From NCBI GenBank assembly GCA_020283715.1, contig JAIQCW010000317.1, positions 62,001 through 126,000 of the forward strand: a stretch of 64,000 nucleotides of DNA, given 5' to 3'. Origin of the DNA: Cytauxzoon felis (Eukaryota; Apicomplexa; Aconoidasida; Piroplasmida; Theileriidae). Shown piece by piece: positions 1 to 62,402 of this stretch; the first letter of the stretch is position 1; each line of letters starts with the position of its first letter. A program made the translations under genes and the position numbers. The notes below the pieces were generated by a model, which was given only the letters and a program-made list of their open reading frames with translations, was not told the DNA's origin and did not search any database.

Positions 1-3000
1 TCAAGTATGTTCTAGAACAATTATACAATCTGACTTTCTCCACCGAAGATTGTCCACCGGAGATCCAATCCTACTCTCTTTACACTAGGCGTGGAGGCTT
101 CTTCAAATTACCTCCCCCTACGCTTCCCTGAGATCAGCTACGGGTTCCACTTGAGGTCAAGTACTACCTTCGCCACGATCTCCGGGAGTGGCATTACCGT
201 CTACGGGGAGGTAATTGGAAGAGCTGTCTGCAAGACGACCTCAGGTGGAGGCGAGTAGGATTGGACTTCAGGTAGAAATGTCGATGTTAATATTTGATGT
301 AGAAAGTTTTATTGATATTATTTTTTGGTAAATATATATATAATAGTTTTTTAAGAAGGGTGAGGTTGTTGATTTGGAGATATTGCGTAGTCCATCATTA
401 CCTAAGATATCTGGATATTTGGCGGGGATACCTTGGTTTTCTCCTAAACGTGAGGAGATTGCGAATAAATATCCTGAATTAGCTTGTAAATTATTGAGGA
501 CACATAATAGTAAGTTTGATGATGAAATATGAAAATAATTTTATCATTAGATAAATATGATGGTGGATCTTGGTCATTTACAACTGTTAATAATACATTT
601 AATAATAATTTTGTATCAATGGATGCCAATATACAAGGCAATAATATTACAGAAAATATAAATCATAAACCATCAATATCAACAGATAATAACGAAACAT
701 GTACTATATCCGAATTTGTACGCAAAATTAATGGTGATTTAAAATGTATACTAAAATATCTATTACTTAAAACCAATACACATGTCAATCCAAATAAAAT
801 CATCTCCAATAACCTCGCTAAAATCATAAACAATTTCATACACGGAAAAAATCATCACTATATCACCACACAAGAAGAAGAATATGAATACCAATTACTC
901 AAAGTACGTTTATAAAAAGAACTTGAAACTACTCGAATTGAAGTCCAATCCATCTGAGGTTACAACTACTGTTCCACTAGGCGTGGAGCCTCTTCTATTT
1001 ACCTCCCCTCGGATTCCCTGAGATCATCCTCGGTATAATGTCTACTCCGAGGAACAGAAAAACTTCAACCCGGAAGAACAGACCTCAAGTGGACTACCCG
1101 TAGCTGATCTCAGGGAAGCGGAGGGGGAAGTAAATAGAGGATGCCACCACGGCGAGTGGAAAAGATAGACCTCAAGTGGAAAGGCTAGTAGAAGAAGAAT
1201 AGGATTGGACCTCAGGTGCTACGTTTATTTGATATATATTATTATTATATATAATATAGGAGGGTGAGAATTCTGAAGAGGTTGATAGACCTCCAGTGGT
1301 TGTGGTTTTAGGTCATGTTAATCACGGTAAGACGACATTGTATAAGATGTTATGTGGTGATAATTTTATTGAGAGTGGTGATATAACTCAGAATATTCGT
1401 GCATCTAAAGTAGAGGGTACGAATCCGATAACATTGATTGATACTCCTGGCCATGAGATATTTTCATTGATGAAGGATTATAGTGCTAAGATAGCTGATA
1501 TAGCGATGATTGTTATTGCAGCTGATGAAGGTATAATGGAACAGACTATAGAAAGTATAAATTTATGTAAAAAAATTAAATTACCATTCATTATTGTCGT
1601 TACTAAAAATGATTTATCAAATGATAACACAGTAGAAGATATCGCACATTCATTATCTGATGAAGGAATTATTGTAGAACAATTCGGAGGAAATATCGAA
1701 TATATAACTTCATCCATACATGATCATGAAAGCTCAAAAAAAAATATCATCGATGCTATTCTACTACAAGTAGCAATCTCCGATCATATCAAATCAACCA
1801 CATCCGATGCCAGAATCGGCGACGGTTATATACTCGACGCCGGTATCGAACAAGGACTCGGTCCATATGCACTCCTAATACTCAAAAATGGAAAACTCAA
1901 GTATGTTTAAGAAATAGCATCTCCAGTTGCCGTTCCACCTGAGGTCCAATTCACCTCTCTTCGTCTTGCAGACAGCTCTTCCAATTACCTATCTCTAAAG
2001 AGTAAAGCCACTCCCGGAGATCGTGGCGAAGGTGGTGATTGGACATCAGGTGGAGTACCCGTAGCTGATCTCAGGGAAGCGAAGGGGGAGGTAATTAGAA
2101 GAGCTGACGGCAGGAACGACCTCAGGTGGAACAACGAGTGGATGTATAGGTGGCTTAGACCTTGGATGGAGTGGTTGTCATCTCAATAACTTTCTTTCCT
2201 CGTTTATTATATATTTATAGGAGGGGTGATTATTTATGTTCTGAATCGAGTTCTGCAAAGATAAAGACAATAAAGGGTGTTTATGGTGATTTACTTGAGG
2301 AAGGCAATCCATCGGAGGTTTTATATGTTTATGGGTTTGAATCTGAGGATATTCCTAGTCCTGGTTCATCATTTACCATATTTAAACATAAAAAGGATGC
2401 TGAAGTATTATCAGAGGTAAATTTGATGCATGAAAATTAAAGTTAAATTCTATATAGCATAAAATGTCTGAGATGCTGAAATTAAAAGTTGATGATGATC
2501 GTTTACAGAAAATGGAGGAGACATTGAACGATTTAGACAATAAGGTTAGGTAGATGGGTAGAACTTATATCATTACTTTAGACTCGTATAGATGGTATAA
2601 CGTATATACCTGTATTATTGAAGTGTGGCACCAGAGGTTCTATTGAACCAATTGAATCCGCAATTGAGGAATTAACATCCATTGGTATAACAAAACGCGC
2701 TAAATTTAAAGTTATACGCTCCAGTATCGGTGAAATTAATGATGTGAGTTGAAGTTTGTGCCAAATTTATCATCATTCAGCACGATATACAATTCGCTAA
2801 TAACAACGATGCAGTTATCATCGAATTTAGCTCCAACAAGCCGAAGAAAGTTAAAGTGGGTTGAGTTGAATCCAATAATTACAATTTTATAACTCATCTA
2901 GACAAAGAGTAAAGTGACGATTGTACAGGGTGATTTAATACATGAACTCTTGAAAGATGCTAAAGAGCAATTGGATTTGTTGATCGGTGAACGTCTTTTA

Positions 3001-3352
3001 GGTATACCAATAGGTAAAGGGGAGATATTAAAAGTATTTGATGCATCAAAGGTAATTTCACTTCATCTGATCTCATTTCAATGACCTTCCAGAATCGCAA
3101 AGCTGCTGGATGTCTAATCTCTAATGGTAAAGTGACCATAGATTCCGAGGTTCGGTTACTACGTGATGATTTACAGTTATTCTATGTGAGTTATTAATCT
3201 CTAGTGTCCATATATTTCAGGGTAAAATATCATCGTTACGAGGAACTAGGGATGACATACAAGAGGCACTAGAGTCTGAATCCTGTGGCATCACACTAGA
3301 TAATTTTAATGATTTCAAACCAAATGATAAATTAGAATTTTATAATTGTTAA
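1..3352 (+). CDS. Translation initiation factor IF-2, organellar type (5' partial)
   Basis: IF-2 brings initiator tRNA to the small subunit of bacterial-type ribosomes, so this copy probably serves the mitochondrion or apicoplast. Exons that splice in phase: up to about 4, 356-509, 551-903, 1260-1900, 2221-2416, 2458-2544, 2582-2743, 2781-2855, 2902-3051, 3093-3185, 3221-3352. Exon 3 carries the IF2_N-like domain (TISEFVRKINGDLKCILKYL). Exon 4 carries the GTPase domain with G1 GHVNHGKTT, G3 DTPGHE and G4 TKND. Exon 5 carries the domain 2 signature GVYGDLLEEGNPSEV, and exon 7 the domain 3 core LLKCGTRGSIEPIESAIEEL. The gene ends normally in domain 4. Three introns (about 5-355, 904-1259, 1901-2220) each hold a PTW repeat; the other seven are 35-46 bp. 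G1 has Asn where IF-2 usually has Asp (GHVDHGKT). The N-terminus, with any targeting peptide, is outside the window. Confidence 0.88.
40..275. repeat. PTW repeat copy 1 (IF-2 intron)
   Basis: Contains the CACTAGGCGTGG tag, a reverse C core (CTTCCCTGAGATCAGC), a reverse W core (CCACGATCTCCGGGAGTGGC) and the tag GCTGTCTGCAAG, and ends at GACCTCAGGTGG. It lies between a GTATGT donor at 5 and an acceptor at 355. Confidence 0.85.
945..1222. repeat. PTW repeat copy 2 (IF-2 intron)
   Basis: The CACTAGGCGTGG tag is followed by CTTCTATTTACC, two D units (ACCCGGAAGAACAG type) and a forward C core, then GTAAATAGAGG, which pairs with the left spacer. It fills most of intron 904-1259. Confidence 0.85.
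1930..2146. repeat. PTW repeat copy 3 (IF-2 intron)
   Basis: Has the CTTGCAGACAGCTC tag, a W core with CTCTAAAGAG and the GCCAC/GTGGC hairpin, a forward C core, the tag GCTGACGGCAG and closing CCTCAGGTGG. It lies inside intron 1901-2220. Confidence 0.85.
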
Positions 3353-3419
3353 TTTTTTAATGTAATTTAACGTTTTCAACTCTAAATATACACATTTTCA
3401 GTGTCATCCTCCCTCCATA

Positions 3420-4358
3420 ATGTCTACTACACATCCAACTGATATAACGACGGAATGGGACGATATACAGAGAAAGCATGGCAATTTACCGAAATTAATA
3501 AAAGGTAAAACGACAGAGGAATTGGATTCTGAGTTTGTTCGGACAACAGAAGATGAATTGTTACGGCAAGTAAGATTGAAGGAGTTGAAGCGAAAGTTTT
3601 ACAGTAAAAATAAGTTATACGGTACACCTGTCCATATCGACTGCAATAACTTCATAAAGGAAGTTACAAATTCTTCGAAATGTAGTGGAGGTGAAGACTT
3701 TTCATTATCTTCCATTCCCATAAATCGTGGCTGTACACCCGAAGCTGATCTCAGGGAAGCGGAGGGGAAGCTAAATAGAGATGCCGTCTGCAAGACGACC
3801 TCAGATGGAATGAATAGCAAAAGAAGTGATGGATATTCTCCGGAAATTGTAGGCAACTATGTGCCTGTGTTGTTATATGGTGATGGAGAAGACGTTAACG
3901 TTTTCAAACGAGCGTGGATAGTTTTGGCTAAGCGGTACCCACATATTAAATTTACAATGGGAAACGTTGTTAATGTGTTGAAGTGTAGTGATAAAAATAT
4001 CAAACCACCGTCGTCTATACTTTTATATTACGCTGGAGACAGTATTTTGCAAAAAAGTACAGCGAGTATACTTAAATTAAATTATGAACTCAAGTCTGCT
4101 ACAGTAGAAGAACGGTTAGCGAATTCAATACAACTCGTTTTGAATAGTGTTAAAGGGCATTCACCATTTACTAGAAGATTTGATGATTCATCAGATGATG
4201 AAAATGACTCCTCTGATGAAGATGATGAAGACATGTTCAAATCCTCAGGTAAAGATCTCAAGTGCAATTTCCTTAATAATCTCACGAAAGGAAATATCAA
4301 TAACAAAAACTCAAAGTCTTACACATCATGGATACTCGATAAAGCAATCGGTGAATGA
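3420..4358 (+). CDS. Phosducin-like protein (PhLP2/PDCL3 type)
   Basis: Phosducin-like proteins are thioredoxin-fold cofactors of the CCT chaperonin that help fold actin, tubulin and G-beta proteins. The N-terminal helix motif EWDDIQRKHGNLP, the strand TPVHIDCNNFIKEV and the later block VPVLLYGDG...FKRAWIVLAKRYPHIKF give the family signature. The tail has an acidic run (DDSSDDENDSSDEDDEDMF), as is common in these proteins. A PTW half-repeat at 3731-3812 sits exactly where the thioredoxin fold should run on, and is read in frame as [18 protein letters not shown]. It may be a 3n intron: GTGAAG at 3691 and TTGTAG ending at 3852 would join in phase, restoring a continuous family match. The start is the first ATG after an AT-rich leader, 68 bases after IF-2. 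Confidence 0.72.
   Translation: MSTTHPTDITTEWDDIQRKHGNLPKLIKGKTTEELDSEFVRTTEDELLRQVRLKELKRKFYSKNKLYGTPVHIDCNNFIKEVTNSSKCSGGEDFSLSSIPINRGCTPEADLREAEGKLNRDAVCKTTSDGMNSKRSDGYSPEIVGNYVPVLLYGDGEDVNVFKRAWIVLAKRYPHIKFTMGNVVNVLKCSDKNIKPPSSILLYYAGDSILQKSTASILKLNYELKSATVEERLANSIQLVLNSVKGHSPFTRRFDDSSDDENDSSDEDDEDMFKSSGKDLKCNFLNNLTKGNINNKNSKSYTSWILDKAIGE
3731..3812. repeat. PTW half-repeat, in frame in phosducin-like ORF
   Basis: Forward C core GCTGATCTCAGGGAAGCGG, then the tag GCCGTCTGCAAGACG and CCTCAGATGG. It has no stop in the reading frame of the surrounding gene. Confidence 0.8.
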
Positions 4359-4397: not shown

Positions 4398-4492
4398 AGC
4401 GTTCCACCTGAATTCCGTCTCACATATCTTAGTCCTACCGTCAGTTCCTCTATTTACTTCCCCCTCAAACTCCCGTAGATCGCTCTCGGGTA
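4398..4492. repeat. Degenerate PTW half-repeat
   Basis: Starts TTCCACCTGAATTCCGTC, then a CTACCGTCAG tag remnant and CCCCCTCAAACTCCCGTAGA. It is intergenic and more diverged than most copies. Confidence 0.7.
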
Positions 4493-6955: not shown

Positions 6956-7558
6956 TTAGAAATACATGGAAAATGAGAATAAGTACTGTTGATGCGATTA
7001 TATATTGAATGTATTCCCGGAATTATTGAAGAATGAAGATAACATGGATAATATTACAGATGACATACGATTGATAGCAAGTATATCCTTGAACATTCAC
7101 GTATCATATGCTGTTAATTAAGATAATTTAGATTCTCTCGATAAATTATCTTAAAATTTCCTCCCTTGATACAAGCATACAGAAGATATTGATTCCTAGA
7201 ATCATGATAACAATAATGGGGTATTTAATCAACACATTACTAGGCACCTATAGGAGCCCATACTAGCATAATGACTAAGAATTTCCATTGCTAGGTCTAT
7301 TTCTACTACATGTTGTTTCCCACTCGCCGTGGATGCTCTTCTAATTAGCTATCTCTAAAGAGTAAAGCCACTCCCAGAGATCGTGGCTGTACACCCGTAG
7401 CTGATCTCAGGGAACTTGAGGGGAAAATAAATAAAGGAGCTCCATGCAATGGAATAGATGTACCTCGAGTGGAATACCGTCTGCATGACGACAAAAGTGA
7501 CCATGCATTAGTCGACAATGAATAAATTATTCCTTTGTATAGATAAACGTATATTCCT
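6956..7558. other. Intergenic region with one PTW repeat
   Basis: AT-rich DNA between the 5' end of the signal-peptide gene and the 3' end of the TruA gene. I see no convincing exon apart from the repeat at 7311-7495. Confidence 0.5.
7311..7495. repeat. PTW repeat copy (intergenic)
   Basis: CACTCGCCGTGG tag, W core with CTCTAAAGAG, forward C core in its short variant, CTCCATGCAATGG tag, then GTACCTCGAGTGG and a partial TCTGCATGACG tag. Confidence 0.8.
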
Positions 7559-9302
7559 TTAAATTAGATTAATGGATCGATTTTTATAACGTCGATTTGA
7601 TTCATTGATTAGAGCCATTGTATTATCATCGAAGTAGACGTTATGTAGATAGAGTCCATGGCCAGGAGCGCAAATGATATTTGGAATTTCCTTTCCATTT
7701 TCTAGTGCTGATTTGATGTCTGATAATTTCAACACGTTAAATCCATACTGTTGAAGAATGATGAGGATAATATTAGTAGTAGAGGACTTACCAGCACCAA
7801 ATGACTGACTATACAGCGTATCATTTTATATAGAAATCTATCACCACTTATAATTATATTCAGCCTGACATGTATCATATAATGGATGAGGGTCAAACGT
7901 ACTTTTTAACATCACCACTTGTATCTTCACGTAATAAATCTATCCTCTTTATAGTACACACTGGGTCCTTTATTTGATCACGCTCATTTCCCCTACTCTT
8001 ACGACTGAAGCCCTAAAGGGGAGAATGAGGAAAGGAAAAGTGAGGAATATAGGAGGAAACAAGAAGTTTCCATAAACTTACGGTGAAATTATACTTTCCA
8101 ACGAATATGTCACACGCTTCCCTAAGCTTCTCGAATGAGAACTCCTTCCTCTTATCAAAATATTCTAAGAGGTAAATTTTGGATGAAAGACTTCCACATA
8201 CTGCCGTGTAAGGTATTAATGAATTGCCTATCTTCAGCAAGTTGCCAATAGTAATTGCGCTCAAATATTGAGGGTAATATTGAAAAATCGATTTTATATA
8301 TATAGCACTTGCCCAGATTATCAAACCTGACATGGAACTGGGGTTGGAGTAGAGACGAGGCTATAGAGAGGGAAACTTACATCATCTCTTGGAGCTCTGA
8401 TTAATGATGTGATGCGTATGTCATCAGGTAGCATTTTGTTTAGTGAGTCATGTACCTTTTCCAAATCTTCATACTGAAACTCTCTATCAAATGATAAATA
8501 TTGACATGCCTAGAGGATAATTATTATTTAAACATCACAAACACACAGTTCCCAGAGAATGTACACCTTTATCCGTCCTACTCGACGTTATTAACGTAAA
8601 TCTCTTCTCATATACACCGAAGGTGTCCTCTACAACAGCTTCTTTTCCATTGCATCCATTTGAAGTCCAAATGTCAGCTTCACCACCTGAGGTCAATCCA
8701 CTAGGCGTGGAACCCTCTCTATTTAGTTCCCCTTCCAGCTCCCGTAGATCGCTTACAGGTTCTGCTTGAGGTCCAACCATTACACTTCTGCCACGATCTC
8801 CGGGAGTGGCTATACCGTTTACGGGGAGGTAATTGGAAGAGCTGACGGCAGGACGGACATCAGTTGGAGAGTTCTCTGCAAGATCGACTTCTGATCTCTT
8901 AACCTTTTTTCTACCCTTGCCAAAGTATCCGTGAATAAGGGTCATGACTCTGAGGATTTCATTGGAAATGCTGTTGACGGCTGGATTATACTTGTCTACG
9001 TTGATGCCATAATTATGTAGGAATATACAGGGGCCTACAAATCCACAATACTTGGTGCCATCATAGGCTACTGTTAATAGGAGGTTAGTTTTAGGCCTCT
9101 CCTCAGCTAAATTATAGGAATTAACGACATTTTTCAAAATTTCTATATTGGTAATGAACAATTTATCGAAATCATTTCTTTTGCGATTATTAAAACAGCC
9201 CATGTTATTTACAAATGATGTGTGTTTACTACATTTACTGACATTGATTAACAAGACATTTAGGCGATTAATACAAATGAACAAGAAGAATTTGATTAAC
9301 AT
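7559..9302 (-). CDS. tRNA pseudouridine synthase, TruA/Pus1 family
   Basis: TruA enzymes isomerise uridine in the tRNA anticodon arm. Exons on the minus strand: 9302-8547, 8509-8381, 8337-8202, 8164-8082, 8012-7903, 7864-7792, 7747-7559; all phases match and introns are 37-69 bp. Motifs in order: VAYDGTKYCGF (substrate strand), SSRTDKGVHSLGT with the catalytic Asp, MLPDDIRITSLIRAP, FHVRFDNLGKCYIYKI, ISGDRFLYKMIRCIVSHLV and the C-terminal APGHGLYLHNVYF. The first 25 residues are hydrophobic, which could be a targeting leader. Between the substrate strand and the catalytic motif, a PTW repeat (8682-8885) adds about 65 in-frame residues starting SSNYLPVNGIATPGDRG. Whether it is translated or spliced out is unclear, since I see no strong splice pair. 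Confidence 0.8.
8682..8885. repeat. PTW repeat, in frame in TruA exon 1
   Basis: Reads without stops on the minus strand as SSNYLPVNGIATPGDRG then PVSDLRELEGELNREG, the same frame used by the copies in the phosducin-like and giant genes. Confidence 0.8.
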
Positions 9303-9780: not shown

Positions 9781-10605
9781 ATGGCAACCAAGAAAGTATC
9801 TACACCTACCGCAGAAAATACGATGCTAGGACCACAAAGTAAAGGCGAACATGTATTTGGAGTCGCCCATATTTATGCATCATTCAATGATACATTCATA
9901 CACGTCACCGATCTCTCCGGTAGAGAAACACTCGTCAGAGTTACAGGTATGTTTATCAAAAGGACTATAACAACTACTCAACATGAGCTCCAATTAGTAT
10001 CTTCACCCCTTTAACTAGCCGTTCCGCCATAGGTCCATCCTGCCGTCAGCTCTTTTACTTACCTATCTCTAAAGAGTAGAGCCACTCCCGGAGATCGTGG
10101 CAGAGATGTTGGTGATTGGACATCAGGTGGAGTACCCGTAGCTGATCTCAGGGAAGCGGAGGGGGAAGTAAAAGGAAAAGCTGACGGCAGGATGGACCTC
10201 AGGTGGGGGAAGTAAAAATATAGTAGATTGGACAAAGCTCGCTCATTTTGTTAATTGCTATATATTTCTATTATAGGTGGTATGAAGGTTAAAGCAGATC
10301 GTGATGAGTCTAGTCCTTATGCTGCTATGATGGCTGCACAGGACGCGGCTGCACGCTTAAAGGAGCTTGGTATAACTGCTGTACATGTCAAACTACGTGC
10401 TACGGGTGGTACAAGATCAAAGACTCCTGGACCAGGAGCTCAATCAGCACTGAGGTTTGTTGGCGTTTTATATATTATACTTTAACTCTTAAACTTCAGG
10501 TCACTTGCACGCTCAGGCTTGAAAATCGGTAGAATTGAAGATGTCACTCCAATACCTACAGATTCTACTAGGAGGAAATGCGGTAGAAGAGGTAGACGTT
10601 TGTAA
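9781..10605 (+). CDS. RPS14: 40S ribosomal protein S14 (uS11)
   Basis: A 149-residue small-subunit platform protein of the cytosolic ribosome. Exons 9781-9946, 10277-10454 and 10500-10605 join in phase. Signatures: [39 protein letters not shown] (split by intron 1 at the Gly codon), [31 protein letters not shown] and the basic end [11 protein letters not shown]. The length matches eukaryotic S14. Intron 1 (9947-10276, 330 bp) is almost filled by a PTW repeat; intron 2 is 45 bp. The strong conservation of S14 makes this one of the clearest places to see the repeat splitting a housekeeping gene. Confidence 0.97.
10018..10214. repeat. PTW repeat (RPS14 intron 1)
   Basis: Left arm CATCCTGCCGTCAGCTC plus TTTTACTTACC; right arm GGAAGTAAAAGG plus AAAGCTGACGGCAGGATG. 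The two arms are near-perfect inverted copies, with a W core and a C core between them. Confidence 0.9.
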
Positions 10606-38260: not shown

Positions 38261-38277
38261 ATAAACTTAATAATCAG

Positions 38278-51411: not shown

Positions 51412-54400
51412 TTATTCTAATACTTCTTCTTTAACTTCGATAATTTCTTCAAAAATGAGATCGGTAGTTTCATATTCATGTGGGTTATAGAATTTATCCC
51501 AGCCATTTTTGAATTCATAATAATTATCCTGTGATTTATACCAATGTACTAAGCTATCCATAATTTTTATAAATTCATCATTATTTTCTTTTCTTTTTTG
51601 TAAATATGCTTCTTTATAATCTCTTTTGGCCTTTTCATCTATCGAATCATACCTCTTTGTATATTCCTTCAAATTTCTACGTATCTTATCAATCTCAGCA
51701 CTCTTTAATAATGATGGCGGATGAGGACGGAAATCGAAACTGAAAAAATTCTCAAGTTTTACCCTATACAGCAATTTCCCTTGAAATGTCCATATACAAT
51801 ACCCAGCCTCTGCGCTATACCTATAAAAAATTGAAATGATTATTGTATATTTTCAATCCAATAAAAAAATAAACCAATCTCATCCACCTGATATCAAATC
51901 CTACTCTCTTTTCCACTCGCTGTTCCACCTGAGGTCGTCCTGCCGTCAGCTCTTCTAATTACCTATCTCTAAAGAGTAGAGCCACTCCCGGAGATCGTGG
52001 CGGAAGAGAAGGTAGTAAGGATGTAACCCCAAGTGGAGAACCCGTAGCTGATCTCAGGGAAGCGGAGGGGGAATTAAATAAAGGAAGCTGTCTGCAAGAC
52101 GAAGAAAGGTGGGAGTAGAAGAGGGAATGTAGTGATTGGACCTCAGGTGGAGTGGGAAATGGTTGTATTAATATTTGATATGTAACATTGGTTATTGAAT
52201 TTCTTGTATTTTATTAGTTTATGTTATAAATACCTGAATGTATCCGATGTTGAGGTTGAGTTATATGTTGGCATGGGTACATTGACACAGGTTGCGAGAT
52301 ATCTACCACAGCTGCTCCATCTGATAGCGTTCATCATAAAGTGTTCATCTTTATATAAGACCTGAGTAAGAATATGATTTTCTTATTGAAATAAACATAC
52401 TTCAACCATATCATTATCATTGAGTGTACAAAAAAATAATGTGCCTTCGGCACCTAAACCACCGAGTATGAAGTAATTACCAGATGGTGACCATTGCATA
52501 TGATTTAATTGTGATGTTATATCAAATGTTGATGTCCACTATATGTAAATATAAAAGTAAGAACAAAAGAACATACAACTGTATCTCTAGTTGTACCAAC
52601 TTCTGATACTTTATAAAATCTAATTGAATGACTTCTAGTTTCTTCATCTTTAACAATTAATGCAAATCTTTTACCTTTAATAATAATAAATAATATATTT
52701 TAATTAAATCAACATACTACCACCTTCTTCCCAATGTAATTGTTTAACACCAGCATCTTCTATCTGTATAGTATCAACTGGTACATTCCTTTCCCTCAAA
52801 CGAAATATTTCAAGTTGATTAAATTGTTTCCTACCCTTTTTACCAGTCTTTTTAGATATAGTAGTCTATATTTATTTTAATTCAATCAAATAATAATCAA
52901 CATACTCTAAGACATAAACAATCACCCTTTGCTTGCCAATGCATAGCTGTACTACATACATTATAAACATTCCTAGAACTCAATTCCTTCCTAGATGGTA
53001 TCTCTATCAATACCAAACGTGCTATAATAATATATATATATATTAAACGAATATATAAGCAAGTCGTCATCTATTCCAATGATGTCCAATAAGTACTTCA
53101 GCTCTTCCACTCACACCTATTTTCGTCCTGCAGACAGCTTCTCTATTTACTTCCCCTTCCAGCTCCCGTAGATCGCTTACAGGTATTCCACTTGAGGTCC
53201 AGTAACTACCTTCACCACGATCTCCGGGAGTGGCTATACTCTTTAGAGATAGATAATTGGAAGAGGCACCACGCCTAGTGGAAAGAAGAGGTAGAGGTAA
53301 CCTCAGGTGGAAGTTGTCTGCAGGACGAGGATAGGTAGAAAAATAGGCTAATGGTATAAAATATTGAGATGTATGGGTGTTGATATGTACCGTAGGGATC
53401 ATTAATGGTATGAGTTTGAAATAAATACCATCAACATGACAACGGTATTAATATCGCAGATTTAAATTATAATATAAATAAAATATATATCATACTCAAT
53501 AAAATCTGCTTACATGATGTACAAATAAATTACATCAATAATCATTTTATACCATTATTACCAGATGGAGTCTAATCTCTATATAATCCACTACACCTTG
53601 CCTTCCACCTGAGGTCTAGTCCTGCCGCCAGCTCCTTTATTTACTTCCCCTCGGATTCCCGTAGATCATCCTCGGTATAATGTCTACCCGGAAGAACATA
53701 AATATGTCAACCCGGAACAACGAAGAGTGTCTACCCCTAAGAACAAGACCTCAAGTGGAAAACCCGTAGCTGATCTCTGGGAAGCGAAGGGGGAAATAAA
53801 TAGGAGAGGCTGACGGCAGGACGACCTCAGGTGGAAGTGGAAGACAAAGTGTATTGGACATCAAGTGGAGTAAGAGATGGTTATATTAATATTTGATGAA
53901 ACAAACCTGGTGCATCTAAAGATCCGGGTATGACGATGGAGAGTATATTATCGGTGGGTGACCAATCGAATTTTTCTGCTGAGTATTTGAGTGGTGCAGG
54001 TTTATTATCATGTCCTGGTATAAGTATCATTTCGGGTAATTGATATACTAATATTTCACTACCAGTTTTTGTTTGATTTAATCTTGCAATATAATTTCCA
54101 TCATGACTCCATAATAATTGTGGAAAATCACCACCTTTAGGTGACATTAAAGGTGTAGGAAATGAACGTAATAATTCACCAGTTATAACTCTCCATATAC
54201 AAATAGATTTATCATGTCTATCTTGTCCTTTAGTACCATCCCATGTTAATAAATATTCTTCACCGGGTGAAAATTGTATTTGAAATACACCTTTATGCTC
54301 AAATCTTATTTTTAAACTAAAATCATCACCACCATATAATGCAATACCAGGTCTTTTATATACAGCTAAATATGAACCACTAGGACTCCATTCTACTTTT

Positions 54401-55785
54401 TGATCAGCCCATGAACGTTTACCTTCAGCACGTTCTCTAGCACCATCATATACTATTGATGTTTCATGCTCTAATGCATCAAACCAATGAACCTCTGTCT
54501 TATCAGCATAACGTATCACAAATTGATCTCTCATATTATCACCAACTAACCACCAATCATTTATACCCTTACGTATAAAACCAAATGTTTTCAATGGAGG
54601 TATACATTTATTTTCATCACTCACTATCCTATCAAAATCATCCAATAATACTATTTTAAATACATGATTCGCATCCAATTTATAATTATTCATATACTTC
54701 AATGCCATATTCGCCTCAAATGATGTCGAAAATGTCATAAACGCTATACCCTTTGTCATCTCATTCGAATTAGTAGGCAACTCCAATTTAAATTCAGCCT
54801 GCTGTACCTCACAACCTATAAATTTATATCATAATTAAAAAAACATCACAAATGAAACTTTTATATTGATGGCCATTCACCTATCTTCGTCTTGCAGACG
54901 GCCTTCTCTATTTATTTCCCCTTCCAGCTCCCGTAGATCGCTTCCAGGTATTCCACTTGAGGTCCAATCTATATACCCGAGGTCTGTTCTTCCGGATACA
55001 GCGTGTTATGTATCATACCGCACTTATAACCGTCCTTTAAGCAGTGATCTTCTTTTTTGTCTATACAACATTTGCACTCATAAAATTTTGGCTTGGGTCC
55101 CTGAGTAGTTAGATTCGTTTCTTGGCCATTTTCGACCTTACCATTCTTAGAATTTGGACCAGTAAACATTTTGGAGACGATGTAGAGAGAGTCTAATACC
55201 ATCTGAAAAATTATTTTGCCAATTTCAGGTTTACACTCGCATTTAGCCTTCTTCAATTCATTCGTATACACCTCAACAAGTTTGAAGTAAAAGAGTATGC
55301 CCGTAGCTGATCTCAGGGAAGCGGAGGGGGAAGTAAATAGAAGAAGCTGACGGCAGGACCAAGAGAGGTGGATGAAAAATGGCATAAGACCTTCGTTAGA
55401 CAGCAGATTAATTATAACATTTCTTCAGATGATAGAATGTATAGTTACCTTTCTTTTCTAGTTCTTTGGTGATGATTTTTTTGAGTACATCATGTAGACG
55501 TGTAAATCTATCTGGGCCGACTTCCGGTACACCGAGTACTGAAGTGATGATTGACGGGTATATGAATAGAAATACCTATTAATGTATTTGGAAATGAATG
55601 TGAAAGAGTAATGGGTGGCTCATTCTCTGCATATTTTTTCATAACTTCTTGATCGAAATCTTCATCATGATCGGATATCCAATCCATTAAACCAGATTCA
55701 AGTTCATCTAATAAAATAATAATATCAAGATGATTTAATTGTTTAAAATACCTGAAGTGAGATCAGATTCCAATATTTTTACCAT
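51412..55785 (-). CDS. EIF3B: Eukaryotic translation initiation factor 3 subunit b
   Basis: eIF3b is a scaffold of the eIF3 complex on the 40S subunit. Ten exons join in phase to about 730 residues: 55785-55752, 55707-55576, 55538-55449, 54815-53907, 53021-52906, 52865-52721, 52674-52577, 52538-52401, 52361-52234, 51814-51412. Landmarks: the pre-RRM strand VLGVPEVGPDRFTRLHDVL, the RRM stretch GIAFMTFSTSFEANMALKYM, beta-propeller blades such as VEWSPSGSYLAVYKRPGIAL and MQWSPSGNYFILGGLGAEG, LVLIEIPSRKELSSRNVYNV, and the helical end DSLVHWYKSQDNYYEFKNGW. Introns of 633, 885 and 419 bp contain PTW repeats; the other six are 37-46 bp. The 633-bp intron also carries an unrelated coding-like insert. 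The start ATG is the first after a stop-rich leader. Confidence 0.93.
51888..52162. repeat. PTW repeat (eIF3b last intron)
   Basis: CACTCGCTGTTCCACCTGAGG, CTGCCGTCAGCTC tag, TTCTAATTACC, W core, C core, GCTGTCTGCAAGACG tag, CCTCAGGTGG. Fills intron 51815-52233. Confidence 0.85.
53095..53340. repeat. PTW repeat (eIF3b 885-bp intron, copy 1)
   Basis: CTGCAGACAGCTTC tag, CTATTTACTTCCCC, reverse C2 core, CCACTTGAGGTCC centre, reverse W core, GGCACCACGCCTAGTGG tag, CCTCAGGTGG, GTCTGCAGGACG. Confidence 0.85.
53600..53882. repeat. PTW repeat with D units (eIF3b 885-bp intron, copy 2)
   Basis: CCACCTGAGGTC, CTGCCGCCAGCTC tag, TTTATTTACTTCCCC, ATCATCCTCGGTATAATG unit, three D units, C core, GCTGACGGCAGG tag and CCTCAGGTGG. 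Two separate elements share one intron here. Confidence 0.85.
54878..54992. repeat. PTW left half flanking an insert (eIF3b intron)
   Basis: CTTGCAGACGGCCTTC tag, CTATTTATTTCCCC, reverse C2 core, CCACTTGAGGTCC and one D-like unit GTTCTTCCGG, then unique coding-like DNA begins. Confidence 0.8.
54993..55300 (-). pseudogene. Coding-like insert between PTW halves (captured gene fragment?)
   Basis: The minus frame is open through the insert: FKLVEVYTNELKKAKCECK, PEIGKIIFQMVLDSLYIV, SKMFTGPNSKNGKVENGQET, FYECKCCIDKKEDHCLKDGY, KCGMIHNT. It is Cys- and Lys-rich and has normal amino-acid composition, unlike an intron. It has no start or stop of its own: the frame enters from one PTW half and leaves through the other. 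It is not part of eIF3b, whose exons on both sides join in phase without it. The source gene is not recognised; a surface-protein fragment is possible. Confidence 0.5.
55298..55380. repeat. PTW right half flanking the insert
   Basis: C core (GCTGATCTCAGGGAAGCGG), GGAAGTAAATAGAAG, GCTGACGGCAGG tag and AGAGAGGTGG, directly after the coding-like insert. Confidence 0.8.
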
Positions 55786-56634: not shown

Positions 56635-59600
56635 CATTTGAGTAAAGTAAAACTATCATTATGGGTCACTGCTACTGGAGCAAGCTCGTATTTGATGACA
56701 TTACCCGTAATTTCATTGGACTTATTGAATACTTGTGGAGGTATATTCTTTTGTAGCACTGCCTCTCATACATTCAACCAAATTATCGAGCGAAAACAAG
56801 ACGCATTGATGAAAAGGACATGTAACAGGTTTGTTGAAACTGTAATCTTCATCTGAAGCTTTGATGGGTGATGATGAAGGTGGTCCAAAGCTTATTGATG
56901 ATGGTGGAGGTTTAACATTGGCAACAGAAATTACATTGGATATTAATGAAGGTACTACTACTCTTTCTGAAGGTGAAACTACAACTTATACTAGTGGTGC
57001 CAGCGATAAGGTGAAAGTTAAGTATCAAAGTTCAGATTATAAAACCACAGGTTTCCAATTCTACATCCATACATTAGTAGCTGGAGGGAAGTTTACATTG
57101 AAGAAGGATATAAAGTATAATGCTAGTGGTGGAACTGCTCCATTACAAGGTGAAGATAATCCTATTCCAAACGTATATGAAGTTTATTATTACAAACATA
57201 ATACTCAAGATAAAGGAGCTTTGAAGATTAAAACTTCTAGTGAGGCAAAGATATTTTATAGTACAACTATTAATACTAATAGCCCATGGAAAAATGAAGA
57301 AAAAGAATCTGTCCCCAGTACTGAAACTGAACTTAAAGCTCTTGTTGAAAAAATTAAAGATGAGGTTGAGATTAAAATTGATAAGATTAAGCCCTACGGC
57401 TGTAATAAACGAATTAATGTTGAAAAGACTCCTGGTAATGGGACTACAGTACCGCAAGGTTACGTTAGATATGAGCATAAACCTAAGAATATCGCTACAA
57501 CTGATTCATTCAAATTAGGTCTCGTTAGGTATAAAGATATTCCATTGAAGTTCGAGCCAGCTCCTCCAACTACAGGTGTTACAGCAGTTTATGTATATTA
57601 TAGTGACAGTGACAATACCCATGAGTTTCCATTAATTGTTTGCGTCAAAGTATCACAAACTAGTCGTACGTATTATAAGAGAGGTAACACGTGGACAAAT
57701 ATTGGTGGTCAGCTTGCTGGTAAAGACCCAGAAAGTGATGAAGTCTCTTCTCTACTTAACACTGAATTTAATAAAATCATCGATAAATATGAAATTAAGC
57801 TTGAGCAAATCGGTAATTACAAAGCAACCCCTCAGGGTGATATAATAACTCCTGAAGCAGTAGAGGAAAAAGGTGCTTCTCCTACATATAAAGGTTTTAA
57901 ACATGAAGTTCCTAGTGGAAGTGTTATAAACCGCGTTACAATCCACAATCAAGTGATAACACAAATTAGCGCGGCCGATCTTCGAGAAAAACAACAGGTA
58001 TTCGTATATTTTACTGAGAGCGAGGCTAATGGAAATCGTGAGAAACCACTCTTGATATGTCTTTCTAAAGATGGAATTAGCGATAATAAAACTGTTCCTG
58101 GTAACAATATTTGGTATAAGCGGAAGGAGAGTAATGGAAATTTTATATGGGAAAATGTTCCCAATGAATATGATAGAATAAAACCAGGTGGAACAAACGG
58201 TAACACAATTGAAACTAATCTTAAAAATCAACTTAGTACAATTAATGGTGCAGTTTCTGGTGATCCAGGTTATCCTAAATTAGAGCCCAATTTAAGTGAT
58301 ACAATGAAAAGTAATCCCGATATAGGAATTATGGATTTCTTCAATTTGTGAATTATTAATCTTACCGTTGATGAAACAATTTCATATTATTGGAATAAAT
58401 TCTTTTGTCTTGCCATTATTTCATCAACAGAGGTTCTTTACTCGCCGTTCCACCTTTATTCGTCTTGCAGACAGCTTCCTCTATTTACTTCCCCCTTCGC
58501 TTCCCTGAGATCAGCTGCGGGTTCTCCACTTGAGGTTACATCACTAACTTCTTGTTCTTAGGGGTAGACATTCTCCGTTCTTCCGGGTTAAACTTTTTTT
58601 GTTCTTCCGGGTAGACATACCGAGGATGATCTACGGGAATCCGAAGGGAAATAAATAGAGAAGCTGTCTGCAAGACGAATAAAGGTGGACAGAAACTATG
58701 TTGAAACGGGTATTTATGATGAGGACCAAAAATAAATCTCTATCGTATTGAATATATCACAATTTATTTCAATATATAGGCCTTTACCTTCATCTTTAAT
58801 AACACCAGCTCAGGCTGGTATGGTAGGATTGACATCATCAATTATTGGAGCATCATTATTATACATGGGTGGTGGTATATACGCGTCATCATTAGCCATA
58901 CTTAATATCGGTCTTTATACATTGGCGTATACACCTTTAAAAAGTATTTATACATGCAAATTCATATTATATTATATTTATAGGGAAAACGGAATGGAAT
59001 ACACATATCGGATCATTAGTAGGAAGCATACCACCACTCATCGGAACACTCGCAGCGGGTGTAAGTTTTTATACACTCTATCAACTTCCATTCGACGACC
59101 GATCACTATCACTCCCACTCGCCGTGGTGGTTCTTTTAATTAGTTATCCCTCAAGTTCCCATAGATCACTTTCGGGTTCCACTTGTGGTTACATAATCAC
59201 TAACTTTCTGTTCTTCCGGGTTGACACTATTTGTTCCTCCGGGTAGAATTCCTGTTCTTAGGGGTTAATAAAATACCGAAGATGATCTACGGGAATCCGA
59301 GGGGAACTAAATAGAAGAGCTCCATGCAATGGGAAAGAGAGTAGGATTGGACTTTATGCGAAACAGCCATACCCTCCTTAGATTTCGCTTATACTTCGCT
59401 TCCATATTTGATAATGTAATCTACAGGGTACATTGATGTCTCATGGTCCATGGTTATTATTTGGTCTGATGTATGTATGGCAATTACCACACTTTTATTC
59501 ATTGGCATGGTTGTGTCGTAAGGATTATATAAGAGCGGAATTTAAAATGTATGGTATACATGATGATACCGGTAAAACTACAGCACGCGCATCATTAATA

Positions 59601-60208
59601 TGGCTATCATTATTAACTGCACTGCCAATGGTATTTATAATTATATAATCCATCATATGTATCTATAGATTTATAACCTATTAGGATATACACCTCCACA
59701 TTTACCAATCATCGCAGCAATTCCAAATTTCATTATTGCACATAAAGCAACTCAATATTACAAAAACCCAAATAACAAAACCGTCGTCAACCTCTTCAAA
59801 CACTCCCTATGGTACGTCATACTATACACAATAAGGAACGTACAAGGCATTACAACTAAGTCAATCCATCTTCTCTTTCTCTTGCAGAGAGCTCTTCTTT
59901 TTACTTCCCCTCGGATTCCCGTAGATCATCCTCGGTATATCTACCCGGAATAACAGGAAGTTAGTGATGTAACCTCAAGTGGAACCCGAAGCTGATCTCA
60001 GGGAAGCGAAGGGAGAATTAAATAGAAGAGCTGTCTGCAAGACGACCTCAGGTGGTGAAGCTCTATGTAATGGGGAAGAGAGTTGGATTGCACTTTGGGT
60101 TGATAGAATTCCATTCGTTTGATATATATAACTTCATATAGGCACATATTATTTTTGATTGGTTGTACATCATATTATGTGAATATTACGGAAAAGAAAC
60201 GAGATTGA
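56635..60208 (+). CDS. COX10: COX10, protoheme IX farnesyltransferase (5' end uncertain)
   Basis: COX10 makes heme O in the inner mitochondrial membrane, for cytochrome oxidase. Exons about 56635-56828, 58780-58943, 58984-59060, 59427-59630, 59669-59811 and 60142-60208 join in phase. Motifs: SKVKLSLWVTATGASSYLM, the prenyl-diphosphate site TFNQIIERKQDALMKRTCNR continuing across the intron to PLPSSLITPAQAG, YTPLKRKTEWNTHIGSLVG, IPPLIGTLAAG, and VWQLPHFYSLAWLCRKDYIR. The next segment, GYTPPHLPIIAAIP, is a helix, and the end ILFLIGCTSYYVN is the last helix. An ATG at 56500 opens a basic presequence-like stretch (YLKVVKKLIYYPSRNRKIFS), but its join is unsure. Intron 56829-58779 (1,951 bp) contains a whole FAINT-like gene plus a PTW repeat; introns of 366 and 330 bp hold repeats; two others are 40 and 38 bp. 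Confidence 0.88.
56864..58351 (+). CDS. FAINT-like protein nested in COX10 intron
   Basis: A single open frame of 495 residues from the ATG at 56864 with three FAINT-like units (YEVYYYKHNTQDKGALKI, AVYVYYSDSDNTHEFPLIV and VFVYFTESEANGNREKPLLI). It begins MGDDEGGPKLIDDGGG with no signal peptide and no LWTWDQ leader, so a 5' exon may be lost. The ATG is only 35 bases from the COX10 donor at 56829, leaving almost no room for a separate promoter. It stops at DIGIMDFFNL and is followed by a PTW repeat, then COX10 exon 2. Closest in style to the fragment at 4.5-5.9 kb (shared IHNQVITQI / IHGNEITGI strands). Confidence 0.6.
   Translation: MGDDEGGPKLIDDGGGLTLATEITLDINEGTTTLSEGETTTYTSGASDKVKVKYQSSDYKTTGFQFYIHTLVAGGKFTLKKDIKYNASGGTAPLQGEDNPIPNVYEVYYYKHNTQDKGALKIKTSSEAKIFYSTTINTNSPWKNEEKESVPSTETELKALVEKIKDEVEIKIDKIKPYGCNKRINVEKTPGNGTTVPQGYVRYEHKPKNIATTDSFKLGLVRYKDIPLKFEPAPPTTGVTAVYVYYSDSDNTHEFPLIVCVKVSQTSRTYYKRGNTWTNIGGQLAGKDPESDEVSSLLNTEFNKIIDKYEIKLEQIGNYKATPQGDIITPEAVEEKGASPTYKGFKHEVPSGSVINRVTIHNQVITQISAADLREKQQVFVYFTESEANGNREKPLLICLSKDGISDNKTVPGNNIWYKRKESNGNFIWENVPNEYDRIKPGGTNGNTIETNLKNQLSTINGAVSGDPGYPKLEPNLSDTMKSNPDIGIMDFFNL
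58432..58692. repeat. PTW repeat with D units (COX10 intron, after nested gene)
   Basis: CTCGCCGTTCCACC, CTTGCAGACAGCTTC tag, reverse C core, CCACTTGAGGTTACATC centre, three reverse D units, ACCGAGGATGATCTACGGG unit, GCTGTCTGCAAGACG tag. Confidence 0.85.
59098..59358. repeat. PTW repeat with D units (COX10 intron)
   Basis: CACTCGCCGTGG tag, TTTTAATTAGTTATCCC, reverse C2-like core, CCACTTGTGGTTACAT centre, three reverse D units, ACCGAAGATGATCTACGGG, CTCCATGCAATGGG tag. In intron 59061-59426. Confidence 0.85.
59868..60088. repeat. PTW repeat (COX10 last intron)
   Basis: CTTGCAGAGAGCTC tag, TTTTTACTTCCCC, ATCATCCTCGGTATA unit, one D unit, C core, GCTGTCTGCAAGACG tag, CCTCAGGTGG and a CTCTATGTAATGGG tag. 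In intron 59812-60141. Confidence 0.85.
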
Positions 60209-61029: not shown

Positions 61030-61998
61030 TTAAGTTTTATTACTACTAGTGGTAGTAGTACTTGTTGATCCAGGTTTAACCTTTGATGCTGGATGTTGAC
61101 TTAATTCTAATGGTACAATATTATCTGTAGATAATAGTAATTGTTTAAGATCATAAAATATCCCCGAGTCTTCTTCAGTTACAAATGATATAGCGTTGCC
61201 CTTCAATCCAGCACGTCCAGTACGACCTATTGTATTATAATTTGAACACCAATACATATAAACATACCAATTCTATGAGTATAAGTTTGTATATCTTTAG
61301 GCATGTCAAAATTGATCACATATTTAACACCTTCTACATCAACACCACGACCAGCAACATCCGTGGCAACCAATATATCATAATCACCCGATTTAAAACT
61401 CGACATCGCCTCCTCCCTACTCTCTTGAGTTTTACCCCCATGCAATGATACAGCACTGTAATAATTTATTATATAGAGTAGCTTCAAATGATGTCCAATC
61501 ACTGTGCCTCTTATAGAGAGATATCCACTTGAGGTCCAATCTACTCTTCTTACACTCCATTCGAGGTCGTCCTGCCGTCAGCTCTTCCAATTACTTATCC
61601 CTGAAGGGTAGAGCCACTCCCAGAGATCGTGGCGATGATAATGATTGGACCTCAGGTGGAACCCGCAGCTGATCTCAGGGAAGCGAAGGGGGAAGTAAAT
61701 AGAGAAGGCCACACGGCGAGTGTAAGACGAGGATGGTGATTGGACCTTGAGTGGAGTTCTTTCTGTATTGTTACATGAAACAAACCGATAGTTCATTTTG
61801 ATGATGGTTTTTGCGATGACATCTGCGACTTTTTTGAGATTGGTAAAGATGATGATTGGTGGTTCGCATGTTGCGAGAATTTCTTCAAGCCTTTGTTTCT
61901 TTTTAGATTCAGGAATGAATTCTAATTGTTGTGTAATTGAACGTTTACCACCACCGACATCTCCAATTGATATAAAAGCTGGAGCTCTTAAATATTTC
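61030..61998 (-). CDS. DEAD-box helicase PRP28/DDX23, C-terminal part
   Basis: PRP28 (human DDX23, U5-100K) replaces U1 by U6 at the 5' splice site. Exons 61998-61785, 61455-61268 and 61226-61030 encode helicase domain 2 in order: [15 protein letters not shown], the Q-L-E-F linker, [20 protein letters not shown] (motif IV), [37 protein letters not shown] (motif V), [20 protein letters not shown] (motif VI) and the PRP28-type end [20 protein letters not shown]. The intron 61784-61456 holds a PTW repeat. The exon at 61998 is preceded by an acceptor, and domain 1 (Q motif, Walker A, DEAD) is missing from the remaining 2 kb. It is therefore either beyond the window or lost. Confidence 0.85.
61512..61765. 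repeat. PTW repeat (PRP28 intron)
   Basis: CCACTTGAGGTCC, CTGCCGTCAGCTC tag, CTTCCAATTACTTATCCC, W core, C core, CCACACGGCGAGTG tag, CCTTGAGTGG. Confidence 0.85.
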
Positions 61999-62094
61999 CT
62001 ATAGAAAATTATAATATATAAATACATTCCGTAAGTAATCTATGGGAAATTAATAGGAGTAAATGAAAGACAATATCTGAGATCCAATTCTTTA

Positions 62095-62402
62095 CAACCA
62101 CTGTTTCCACTCGCTTCCACCGTAGGTCCAATCACTATCTTCCTTCGTCTTGCAGACAGCCTCTCTATTTATCTATCTCTAAAGAGTAGAGCCACTCCCA
62201 GAGATCGTGGCGATGATGAAGGTTATAGTTATTGGACCTCAAGTGGATGTGGAACCCGAGAACGATCTCCGGGAGTTTGAGGGGGAAGTAATTAGGAAAG
62301 CTGTCTGCAGGACGAGTAGACGCAGGATAGACCTCGAGTGGAGAGCTCCATGCAATGGAAAATGAAGGTGGAGATGATATATAGATTGGACCCGGAGTAG
62401 AT
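62095..62402. repeat. PTW repeat between fusion gene and PRP28 exon
   Basis: CCACCGTAGGTCC, CTTGCAGACAGCC tag, CTATTTATCTATCTC, W core, C2-like core, GCTGTCTGCAGGACG tag, ACCTCGAGTGG, CTCCATGCAATGG tag. Probably in a PRP28 intron. Confidence 0.85.

What the first reader, a model, noticed from the sequence alone, without database searches (positions are those of the whole stretch)
40..62402. A modular hairpin repeat family ('PTW element') built from interchangeable parts
About 32 copies in 64 kb share a grammar rather than one consensus. Outer P arms are CCACCTGAGGTC or CCACTTGAGGT and their complements. Next comes one of about six short tags: CTTGCAGACAGCTC, CTGCCGTCAGCTC, CCATTGCATGGAGC, CACTAGGCGTGGAGC, CACTCGCCGTGGAGGC, TTGCAGAGAGCTC. 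Then a spacer such as TTCTAATTACC or CTATTTACTTCC, then a W core (with CTCTAAAGAG and GCCACTCCCGGAGATCGTGG) or a C core (GCTGATCTCAGGGAAGCGG, or the rearranged C2 form GAAGCGATCTACGGGAGC). The right half mirrors the left. Modules recombine freely between copies, and several are small hairpins (CAC..GTG, CTG..CAG, CCAT..ATGG). I know no described element with this combinatorial layout.
Basis: seen in the sequence. Interest (0 to 1): 0.88.

Follow-up and report, generated by a model that had tools for sequence, protein, structure and literature searches.

The report
Shuffled hairpin repeats skewing neighbouring DNA
A parasite genome carries thousands of copies of a two-sided DNA element built from interchangeable hairpins, and the host DNA next to most copies that could be measured has changed in a strand-specific way, which suggests that the element acts on the DNA around it rather than just sitting there.

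Summary
The element is real: 33 core-bearing intervals in the window, 7,087 core loops in the 8.6-Mb genome (reversed control 12), 14% of a 304-kb sample. Of 111 two-core intervals 109 are head-to-head halves, usually one W/F-type and one C-type (92 of 93 classifiable). Stems covary around a constant loop (96% Watson-Crick; slid controls at most 32%). Modules are near linkage equilibrium beyond about 25 bases, so the combinatorial reading holds. Predicted places: 95 intronic, 67 intergenic, 29 exonic, 23 of these in one frame. Main new result: host DNA switches strand composition at the element. Third-codon-position GC skew is -0.75 left and +0.78 right of intronic copies, similar but weaker elsewhere, fading over 200-600 bp, near zero at control introns. 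On the outward strand the change looks like A->G plus C->T. I infer single-stranded exposure, most likely by outward transcription with R-loops (0.42). No target-site duplication was seen in 31 elements. My searches of an open-access library found no description of it.

The parts
64..273 (.). element 1: C half left, W half right; in predicted intron 1-346
939..1218 (.). element 2: F half left, C half right; predicted intron 904-1259
1929..2133 (.). element 3: W left, C right; predicted intron 1901-2220 after the IF-2-like exon
3737..3814 (+). element 4: C half (possible decayed W part by eye) in frame in ORF 3420-4358
4400..4484 (.). element 5: single left half, intergenic
7317..7478 (.). element 6: W left, variant C right, intergenic
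8642..8883 (-). element 7: two-core copy in frame inside ORF 8535-9302 (weak TruA match, E 0.00029, below cut-off; no Pfam match)
10031..10216 (.). element 8: W left, C right; intron 9947-10276 of ribosomal protein S11-family gene
11613..11863 (.). element 9: D left, W right, intergenic
19111..19204 (+). element 10: W half in frame in ORF 12944-20017
20781..20887 (.). element 11: W half, intergenic
24444..24716 (.). element 12: W left, C right; predicted intron 24405-24762
27129..27439 (.). element 13: C left, W right, intergenic
38238..38522 (.). element 14: C left, W right, intergenic
39357..39892 (.). elements 15-16: E half ... ~235-nt interior ... D half (N-type), predicted intron 39300-39935
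40218..40599 (.). element 17: W-like left (stem altered), C right, predicted intron
41797..42132 (.). element 18: C left, F right with repeat array between, predicted intron
45578..46143 (.). elements 19-20: C-type half and D half, loops 436 bp apart, intergenic
47478..47628 (.). elements 21-22: one altered and one D half, predicted intron
50820..51231 (.). element 23: F left, D right with repeat array, predicted intron
51897..52155 (.). element 24: W left, C right, predicted intron
53080..53328 (.). element 25: D left, W right, predicted intron
53602..53869 (.). element 26: F left, C right, predicted intron
54884..55373 (.). elements 27-28: D half and C half, loops 380 bp apart
58440..58679 (.). 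element 29: C left, F right, predicted intron
59113..59354 (.). element 30: G left, F right, predicted intron
59877..60090 (.). element 31: F left, C right, intergenic
61489..61747 (.). element 32: W left, C right, predicted intron
62092..62392 (.). element 33: W left, E right, predicted intron
1701..1900 (+). IF-2-like exon left of element 3: third positions 21 C, 0 G
2221..2416 (+). predicted exon right of element 3: third positions 13 G, 2 C
9781..9946 (+). S11 exon 1 left of element 8: third positions 14 C, 4 G
10277..10454 (+). S11 exon 2 right of element 8: third positions 12 G, 3 C

Best explanation
A long-resident, genome-wide family of two-sided initiation-like sites. SHOWN: a complete copy is two inverted half-elements (core hairpin, spacer, tag hairpin, P box) facing outward; the hairpins are conserved as base-paired shapes with constant loops; modules a few tens of bases apart are nearly in linkage equilibrium across copies; and the host DNA outside carries an excess of G over C and T over A, as if by A->G and C->T, on the strand that runs 5'->3' away from the element on both sides, strongest about 100-260 bp from the core and fading over 200-600 bp. 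INFERRED: the outward strand is repeatedly single-stranded there. The mechanism I think most likely is outward transcription starting in or next to each half, with R-loops that expose the non-template strand; the arm linkers, poor in G on the left and in C on the right, would have been worn by the same process while the paired modules are kept. INFERRED: modules are refreshed by short-tract ectopic conversion between copies, and copies have stayed in place long enough for the flanks to change.
For: Covarying stems and loops; tags covary too, including a pseudoknot-like pair GCC/GGC 68, GGC/GCC 37, mismatched 4 among forms with an intact GTGG. Near linkage equilibrium. Third-position GC skew at 50-100 bp left/right: -0.75/+0.78 for intronic (95), -0.59/+0.63 intergenic (67), -0.71/+0.60 exonic (29); 81 ordinary introns >400 bp from elements near zero (largest within 600 bp: +0.22). 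Present on all four contigs sampled, 0.55-0.70, and for core classes W, F, C, D, E, 0.62-0.80 (class G, 12 G+C only, 0.17); cores with an altered stem 0.47 (Fisher p=0.006 against the pooled intact classes). Of 224 halves with at least 4 assessable G+C (322 loops in all), 207 have the predicted sign, 11 the opposite, 6 tie. On the outward strand C/(C+T) goes from 0.22 (1,000-1,500 bp) to 0.08, G/(G+A) from 0.17-0.24 to 0.44, and purines at four-fold sites stay at 0.50-0.53, as transitions would give. Element-free regions show no excess of such flips (5 vs 5 reverse). Transcription exposes the non-template strand and gives G+T excess (passages of PMC2927911, PMC10030826).
Against: No transcript, R-loop or replication data. 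Elements avoid divergent spacers (7 of 30 hold one) and favour convergent ones (18 of 27; tandem 12 of 28 and 11 of 33), so they do not look like gene promoters. Single halves are not cleanly one-sided: single '+' halves (18) give -0.03 inner, +0.56 outer; single '-' halves (16) give -0.31 outer, +0.28 inner; 13 of these 34 keep a degenerate opposite loop. No start motif was looked for or found; the middle linker varies. Substitutions are inferred from composition, not from an alignment with an outgroup. Gene models come from a home-made HMM without RNA evidence.
Confidence: 0.42

Rival explanations
1. Nick-and-displace: an endonuclease nicks at the core hairpin and DNA synthesis runs outward, displacing the outward strand for about 200-300 nt (rolling-circle-like), which also spreads and shuffles modules.
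For: Polarity and short range fit; conserved hairpins could be the recognition sites; would also explain copy spread.
Against: No tyrosine recombinase (PF00589) or Y1 transposase (PF01797) match in the genome; Helitron_like_N gave none but its control set also rang nowhere, so that search is uninformative; no target-site duplication signal in 31 elements. Other nickase families were not searched.
Confidence: 0.2
2. Sequence-specified replication origins: two inverted half-sites launch diverging forks; the outward strand is the lagging-strand template.
For: Head-to-head halves and G+T-rich outward strand are origin-like; more frequent in convergent spacers; where the next element is more than 2.5 kb away a weaker tail persists (+0.31 at 500-700 bp).
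Against: Most of the skew is lost by about 300-400 bp in all three gap classes, whereas fork polarity should fall roughly linearly over the gap (the expectation is my inference); roughly 3,700 sites in 8.6 Mb is very dense.
Confidence: 0.15
3. Passive mobile element (MITE or introner type): copies spread by transposition, structure matters only for mobilisation, and the flanks are a by-product of insertion or were chosen by the inserting machinery.
For: Dispersed in introns, intergenic DNA and exons; 23 of 29 predicted exonic copies use one frame, as random insertion plus purging of stops would give.
Against: No TSD seen; only one RVT locus, in a 1,010-aa open frame, plausibly telomerase; no subfamily linkage; such strong flank bias should need long residence (inference); no excess of element-free flips that could have been targets.
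Confidence: 0.13
4. Selection, not mutation, sets the flanks: left DNA is kept G-poor and right DNA C-poor so that the element folds without competing pairs.
For: Linkers inside elements follow the same rule.
Against: Reaches third codon positions of coding exons to 260 bp and beyond and looks transitional; left and right flanks of one element are only slightly more complementary than swapped ones (11.1 +- 0.3 vs 10.5 +- 0.2, 70 elements).
Confidence: 0.1

Closest known systems
Rickettsia palindromic elements (RPE)
   Same: About 150-bp palindromic repeats that sit in frame inside protein genes and encode a recurrent peptide (passage in PMC10969869); here 23 of 29 predicted exonic copies read SSSNYLSL...TPGDRG and/or [12 protein letters not shown] in one frame.
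   Different: Nuclear genome of a eukaryote, two-half grammar, covarying interchangeable hairpins, about half of the intervals in predicted introns, flank asymmetry.
BOX-type modular repeats of pneumococcus
   Same: Modular inverted repeats, many copies (modularity recalled; the review passage seen only mentions large BOX elements).
   Different: No tandem boxB-like core (recalled); modules here are alternative hairpins near equilibrium; eukaryote.
Introner elements (e.g. Amoebophrya)
   Same: Repeated hairpin-forming intron sequences in a protist, not explained by a transposase (passages in PMC7789003).
   Different: There, inverted and direct repeats lie at the exon/intron borders. Here splice sites lie a median 48 nt (donor) and 61 nt (acceptor) outside the recognisable modules (82 introns), and copies also sit in exons and between genes.
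MITEs
   Same: Short, inverted-repeat, dispersed.
   Different: No TSD seen, no fixed terminal sequence recognised, no transposase found in the families searched; Apicomplexa were reported to lack class II elements (PMC9141347 passages).
Mobile double-hairpin elements / GC clusters of fungal mitochondria (recalled, from no call)
   Same: Hairpins with constant loops and compensating stems.
   Different: Organelle elements; no flank asymmetry known to me.
Transcription starts / replication origins with GC and AT skew switches
   Same: Same sign and kind of asymmetry on diverging strands (passages).
   Different: Depleted upstream of genes; about 300-bp scale; thousands of sequence-defined sites in exons, introns and spacers.

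Membership tests
MITE / TIR DNA transposon | target-site duplication of fixed length | tested here: not met
   no offset pair stands out in 31 elements with outer P boxes on both sides; true ends uncertain, so the test is weak
MITE / TIR DNA transposon | related transposase in the genome | tested here: inconclusive
   Phage_integrase and Y1_Tnp absent; eukaryotic DDE families not searched
MITE / TIR DNA transposon | subfamilies with linked diagnostic changes | tested here: not met
   near linkage equilibrium in 91 elements
Rickettsia palindromic element | in-frame insertion in one reading frame | tested here: met
   10 of 11 simple two-core exonic copies are sense and 10 of 11 open in one frame; 23 of 29 predicted exonic intervals (counted by eye)
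Rickettsia palindromic element | sequence relationship to RPE families | not tested
   only an exact W-core scan of the prokaryote genome collection was run: one hit, in an archaeal MAG, not examined
Introner element | element supplies the splice sites or lies at the exon border | tested here: inconclusive
   median 48 and 61 nt between recognisable modules and predicted splice sites; donor-like motif on the proper side in 0 and 1 of 30 intergenic copies for the two strands, against 15 and 17 of 61 intronic ones; true element ends unknown
Introner element | same intron absent in close relatives | not testable with these tools
   no related genomes held; within-sample paralogs uninformative
Retroelement / SINE | reverse transcriptase source | tested here: inconclusive
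   one RVT_1 locus, in a 1,010-aa frame, probably telomerase
Known structured RNA | match to an Rfam family | tested here: not met
   none in the window (gathering) or in L017, L022, L023 (E<=0.5)
Replication origin | fork polarity extending towards the next origin | tested here: inconclusive
   most skew lost by 300-400 bp regardless of gap, with a weak tail when the gap exceeds 2.5 kb
Gene promoter | enrichment upstream of genes | tested here: not met
   depleted in divergent spacers

The most novel reading that the evidence does not exclude
Roughly 3,700 sequence-encoded, two-sided sites open the parasite's DNA outward in both directions in every part of the genome, including inside exons and introns of housekeeping genes; their hairpin modules evolve like freely recombining genes in a population, and their activity has rewritten the codon usage of the neighbouring genes.
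Probability: 0.4. Interest if true: 0.95.

Novelty: categorically new. Interest (0 to 1): 0.87.

Why it matters
Repeats are usually treated as passengers. Here a repeat family filling 14% of the sampled DNA sits at the centre of a strong, local, strand-specific composition field that reaches coding sequence. Codon usage in this genome then partly records distance from the nearest element, which would confound dN/dS and phylogeny, and it points to a process at thousands of defined sites that can be mapped directly. Near linkage equilibrium between hairpins only tens of bases apart is also unusual and offers a clean system for studying exchange between dispersed repeats.

Tried and rejected
DSB with 5' resection: would expose the opposite strands and give the opposite skew signs (compare); rejected on polarity. 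Host-gene transcription as the sole cause: the upstream side has the opposite strand affected, and intergenic and exonic copies behave alike; rejected. Introner with built-in splice sites: not supported. Kissing-loop co-evolution between the two cores of an element: W-loop x C-loop p=0.86; no support. Local spread: 81 pairs of copies within 4 kb hardly share more alleles than copies on other loci (0.384 +- 0.024 vs 0.358). Reading frame: intronic copies keep core spacing 1 mod 3 in 32 of 53, equally in sense and antisense, intergenic 10 of 27 (Fisher p=0.06); unexplained, not used. Empty sites: of the rows that stayed in view none spanned a junction, but the printout was cut, so this is not a full negative. 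Homology search of the TruA-like ORF: 345 candidates, none at E<=0.001. Organism not identified: a FAINT domain, intron style and genome size point to a Theileria/Cytauxzoon-like piroplasm (my judgement); C. felis assembly statistics differ (9.1 Mb, 361 contigs, 31.8% GC; PMC3748084 passages). T. parva introns have modes of 55 and 80 bp (PMC2612703 passages), so a class of 379-nt element introns is not apparent there. An earlier count gave 109 of 117 two-core intervals; the recount is 109 of 111.
Full report
SAMPLE. The window is G000:C162:62001-126000 of an unnamed 8.62-Mb, 181-contig genome. I worked on the window plus 24 ten-kb stretches from contigs C162, C4, C8 and C9 (L009-L032): 304 kb, 3.5% of the genome. 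Contigs were taken from the top of a hit list, so the sample is richer in cores (1.06 per kb) than the genome (7,087 in 8.62 Mb, 0.82 per kb). Scaling 167 core units per 322 loops gives roughly 3,700 elements genome-wide; this is an extrapolation.

ANATOMY. The common denominator is an 11-base loop, GATCTNNGGGA: 324 copies in the sample, reversed control 1. Around it stand different stems: GCCAC/GTGGC (W), GCT/AGC (C), AGC/GCT (D), AAC/GTT (E), GAT/ATC (F) and rarer ones. Over 322 copies the three innermost pairs are Watson-Crick in 97, 96 and 95%, against 51, 38 and 35% if the two sides were independent; sliding one side by 1-3 bases drops the mean from 0.96 to at most 0.32 over copies, and from 0.94 to at most 0.43 over 196 distinct 31-mers. 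Pairs 4 and 5 are mostly not Watson-Crick (43 and 46%). Departures of G-T and A-C type in pairs 1-3 are 16 and 9, so this does not say which strand, or whether RNA or DNA, is selected. Tags behave alike: GTCT/AGAC 66, CCAT/ATGG 20, CTCT/AGAG 15; one common tag (GACG with GGAC, GGAT or GGAA, 94 copies) does not fit this pairing; the CCAC/GTGG tags add a second, interleaved pair, GCC/GGC 68 or GGC/GCC 37 with 4 mismatched, as in an H-type pseudoknot. A second W-half hairpin shows r2=1.0 and 0.85 between paired bases. Whole copies fold better than shuffles (z mean -4.83, 36 of 40 sampled below -2).

GRAMMAR. A half is core, spacer, tag, P box, reading outward. 191 core-bearing intervals cover 42.5 kb, 14.0% of the sample: 109 two-core '-+' (head to head), one '--', one '++', none '+-', 71 with one core, 9 with three or more. 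Of 93 '-+' intervals with both stems classifiable, 92 pair a W/F with a C/D/E/G core; one is F with W. A third form has two C-type halves around a conserved ~235-nt interior (14 units), and some linkers hold ACCCGGAAGAAC arrays.

SHUFFLING. In 91 of the 109 two-core elements, mutual information is near its shuffled value for most of 45 feature pairs, including tag against core of the same half. Exceptions: stem x loop of one hairpin and W/F core x its spacer (p=0.0005), C tag x orientation (0.003), W loop x W spacer (0.02), W/F core x C-type core (0.05), uncorrected. Nucleotide r2 falls from 0.32 (84 W halves) and 0.47 (77 C/D halves) at neighbouring sites to 0.011 beyond 15 nt in the W half and 0.015 beyond 25 nt in the C half, about the 1/n floor; the 15-24 nt bin of the C half still has mean 0.17, median 0.02, because paired bases lie that far apart. 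Ordinary repeat subfamilies would not look like this. I infer short-tract exchange among copies plus selection that keeps each hairpin whole.

PLACEMENT. A home-made HMM gene finder, trained on the sample itself, puts 95 intervals in introns, 67 between genes and 29 in exons. 87 introns with elements have median length 379 nt, 230 without have 44; of 82 complete element introns 81 would carry at least one stop if retained. Some exon calls are partial or doubtful (rows 4, 9, 13, 14 and 18). Homology-backed cases: an exon with a partial IF-2 match (TIGR00487, 6.6e-49, below the whole-protein cut-off) and a ribosomal S11-family gene whose two exons match PF00411 on either side of element 8. 23 of 29 predicted exonic intervals read the same strand and frame; of 11 simple two-core ones 10 are sense, against 25 sense and 28 antisense in introns. 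Convergent spacers hold elements in 18 of 27 cases, divergent in 7 of 30, tandem in 12 of 28 and 11 of 33 (convergent vs divergent p=0.0014).

THE ASYMMETRY. Host DNA beside the elements switches strand composition at the element. Third codon positions, GC skew at 50-100 and 100-150 bp: intronic -0.75, -0.73 left and +0.78, +0.72 right; intergenic -0.59, -0.54 and +0.63, +0.45; exonic -0.71, -0.45 and +0.60, +0.65. It fades by 200-300 bp for intergenic and exonic copies and over 300-600 bp for intronic ones. Controls: 81 ordinary introns more than 400 bp from elements show values near zero, with one bin at +0.22 (z 2.9) and the 600-900 bp bins at -0.19 and +0.15; all 174 ordinary introns, elements allowed nearby, show a weak skew of the opposite sign (up to +0.26 left, -0.18 right), as expected between elements. 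The skew is also seen without gene models: -0.33 and +0.31 over all bases 0-20 bp outside the modules. 207 of 224 assessable halves have the expected sign (p about 5e-48 if independent, which neighbouring halves are not quite). On the outward strand C/(C+T) falls from 0.22 at 1,000-1,500 bp to 0.08 at 180-220 bp and G/(G+A) rises from 0.17-0.24 to 0.44 at 150-180 bp; the closest bins (60-120 bp from the core, 53-148 sites) are less extreme; four-fold sites go from A .40 C .10 G .10 T .40 to A .27 C .02 G .26 T .45, so purine and pyrimidine totals hardly move, as transitions would give. By example, the IF-2-like exon to the left of element 3 ends its codons with 21 C and no G, the exon to the right with 13 G and 2 C. 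Regions more than 600 bp from any core hold 5 flips of this kind and 5 of the reverse kind, so there is no sign of pre-existing flips that elements might have chosen. Cores with an altered stem show less (0.47 vs 0.66 pooled; p=0.006). Genes have a mild baseline of the same sign on their own coding strand (+0.12 overall, +0.175 more than 800 bp from cores), which may explain the longer tail downstream within genes.

WHAT IT MEANS. A->G with C->T on one strand is what long single-stranded exposure is expected to do (deamination of A and C; general knowledge); the non-template strand and the replicating leading/lagging strands are the usual cases (passages in PMC2927911 and PMC10030826). The exposed strand runs outward on both sides. 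Outward transcription with R-loops, outward displacement synthesis from a nick, and diverging forks have the right polarity; double-strand-break resection has the wrong one. Most of the skew is lost by 300-400 bp whatever the distance to the next element, which speaks against fork polarity, though a weak tail (+0.31 at 500-700 bp) remains where the next element is more than 2.5 kb away. Single halves give a mixed picture: 18 '+' halves are one-sided (+0.56 outer, -0.03 inner), 16 '-' halves are not (-0.31 outer, +0.28 inner), and 13 of the 34 keep a degenerate partner loop. I therefore favour outward transcription at 0.42 and leave the rest open.

ENZYMES AND RELATIVES. No match for Phage_integrase or Y1_Tnp; one RVT_1 locus in a 1,010-aa frame, likely telomerase (my guess); Helitron_like_N uninformative because its controls were silent. 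An exact C core is absent from the viral contigs, and an exact W core has one hit, in an archaeal MAG, in the prokaryote genome collection. A survey of 64 apicomplexan genomes reports no transposable elements in C. felis, T. parva, T. annulata and T. orientalis and dropped its MITE candidates as likely false positives (PMC9141347 passages). Ten literature searches were answered; those aimed at such an element in piroplasms (two returned nothing) listed no title or abstract describing it, and on hairpin elements was swamped by unrelated papers. Of the listed papers I saw passages of eight and listings of the rest. Subscription papers, preprints, Dfam and Repbase were not searched.

Noticed in passing
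window 27500-38230: About 10.7 kb of tandem paralogous genes on the minus strand with no element inside (6.7 expected from the sample average; one interval starts at the right edge); recently expanded families may lack elements.
   Followed up: partly
window 39460-39635; L017 2117-2389, 7624-7896; L022 2076-2347; L023 966-1273: A conserved ~235-nt interior, about 80% identical between copies, found between two C-type halves; no Rfam match in L017, L022, L023.
   Followed up: partly
window 50935-51115; L022 9513-9685; L024 7532-7734: Arrays of ACCCGGAAGAAC-like 12-mers with variable C-poor spacers between the two cores; in exons they read NPEEQ, STPKN, PGGTG.
   Followed up: no
L012 1850-1935; L016 about 2300-2400; window 27270-27330: A linker with a further palindrome (CATCATTCCCATGATGG) shared by several copies.
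   Followed up: no
window 45657-46093 and L016 6980-7416: Two loci with a similar AT-rich 436-bp stretch between element halves, also resembling window 5860-6100 by eye.
   Followed up: no
L009 7500-9000, L017 1-1500, L031 3900-5200, L012 500-2100, L013 9200-10000, L016 2100-3200, window 61800-63200: Gene family (membrane-protein-like by eye) whose members mostly carry an element or half-element near their 3' ends, each with different modules: a possible case of module turnover at a shared site.
   Followed up: partly
intronic elements, sample-wide: Distance between W and C loops is 1 mod 3 in 32 of 53 intronic copies, in both orientations, but in 10 of 27 intergenic ones; intronic copies may be refreshed from coding copies.
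   Followed up: partly
window 4560-5900 and 6128-6955, minus strand: FAINT-domain (PF04385) gene at 6128-6955; the neighbouring stretch looks similar by eye and was not scanned.
   Followed up: partly
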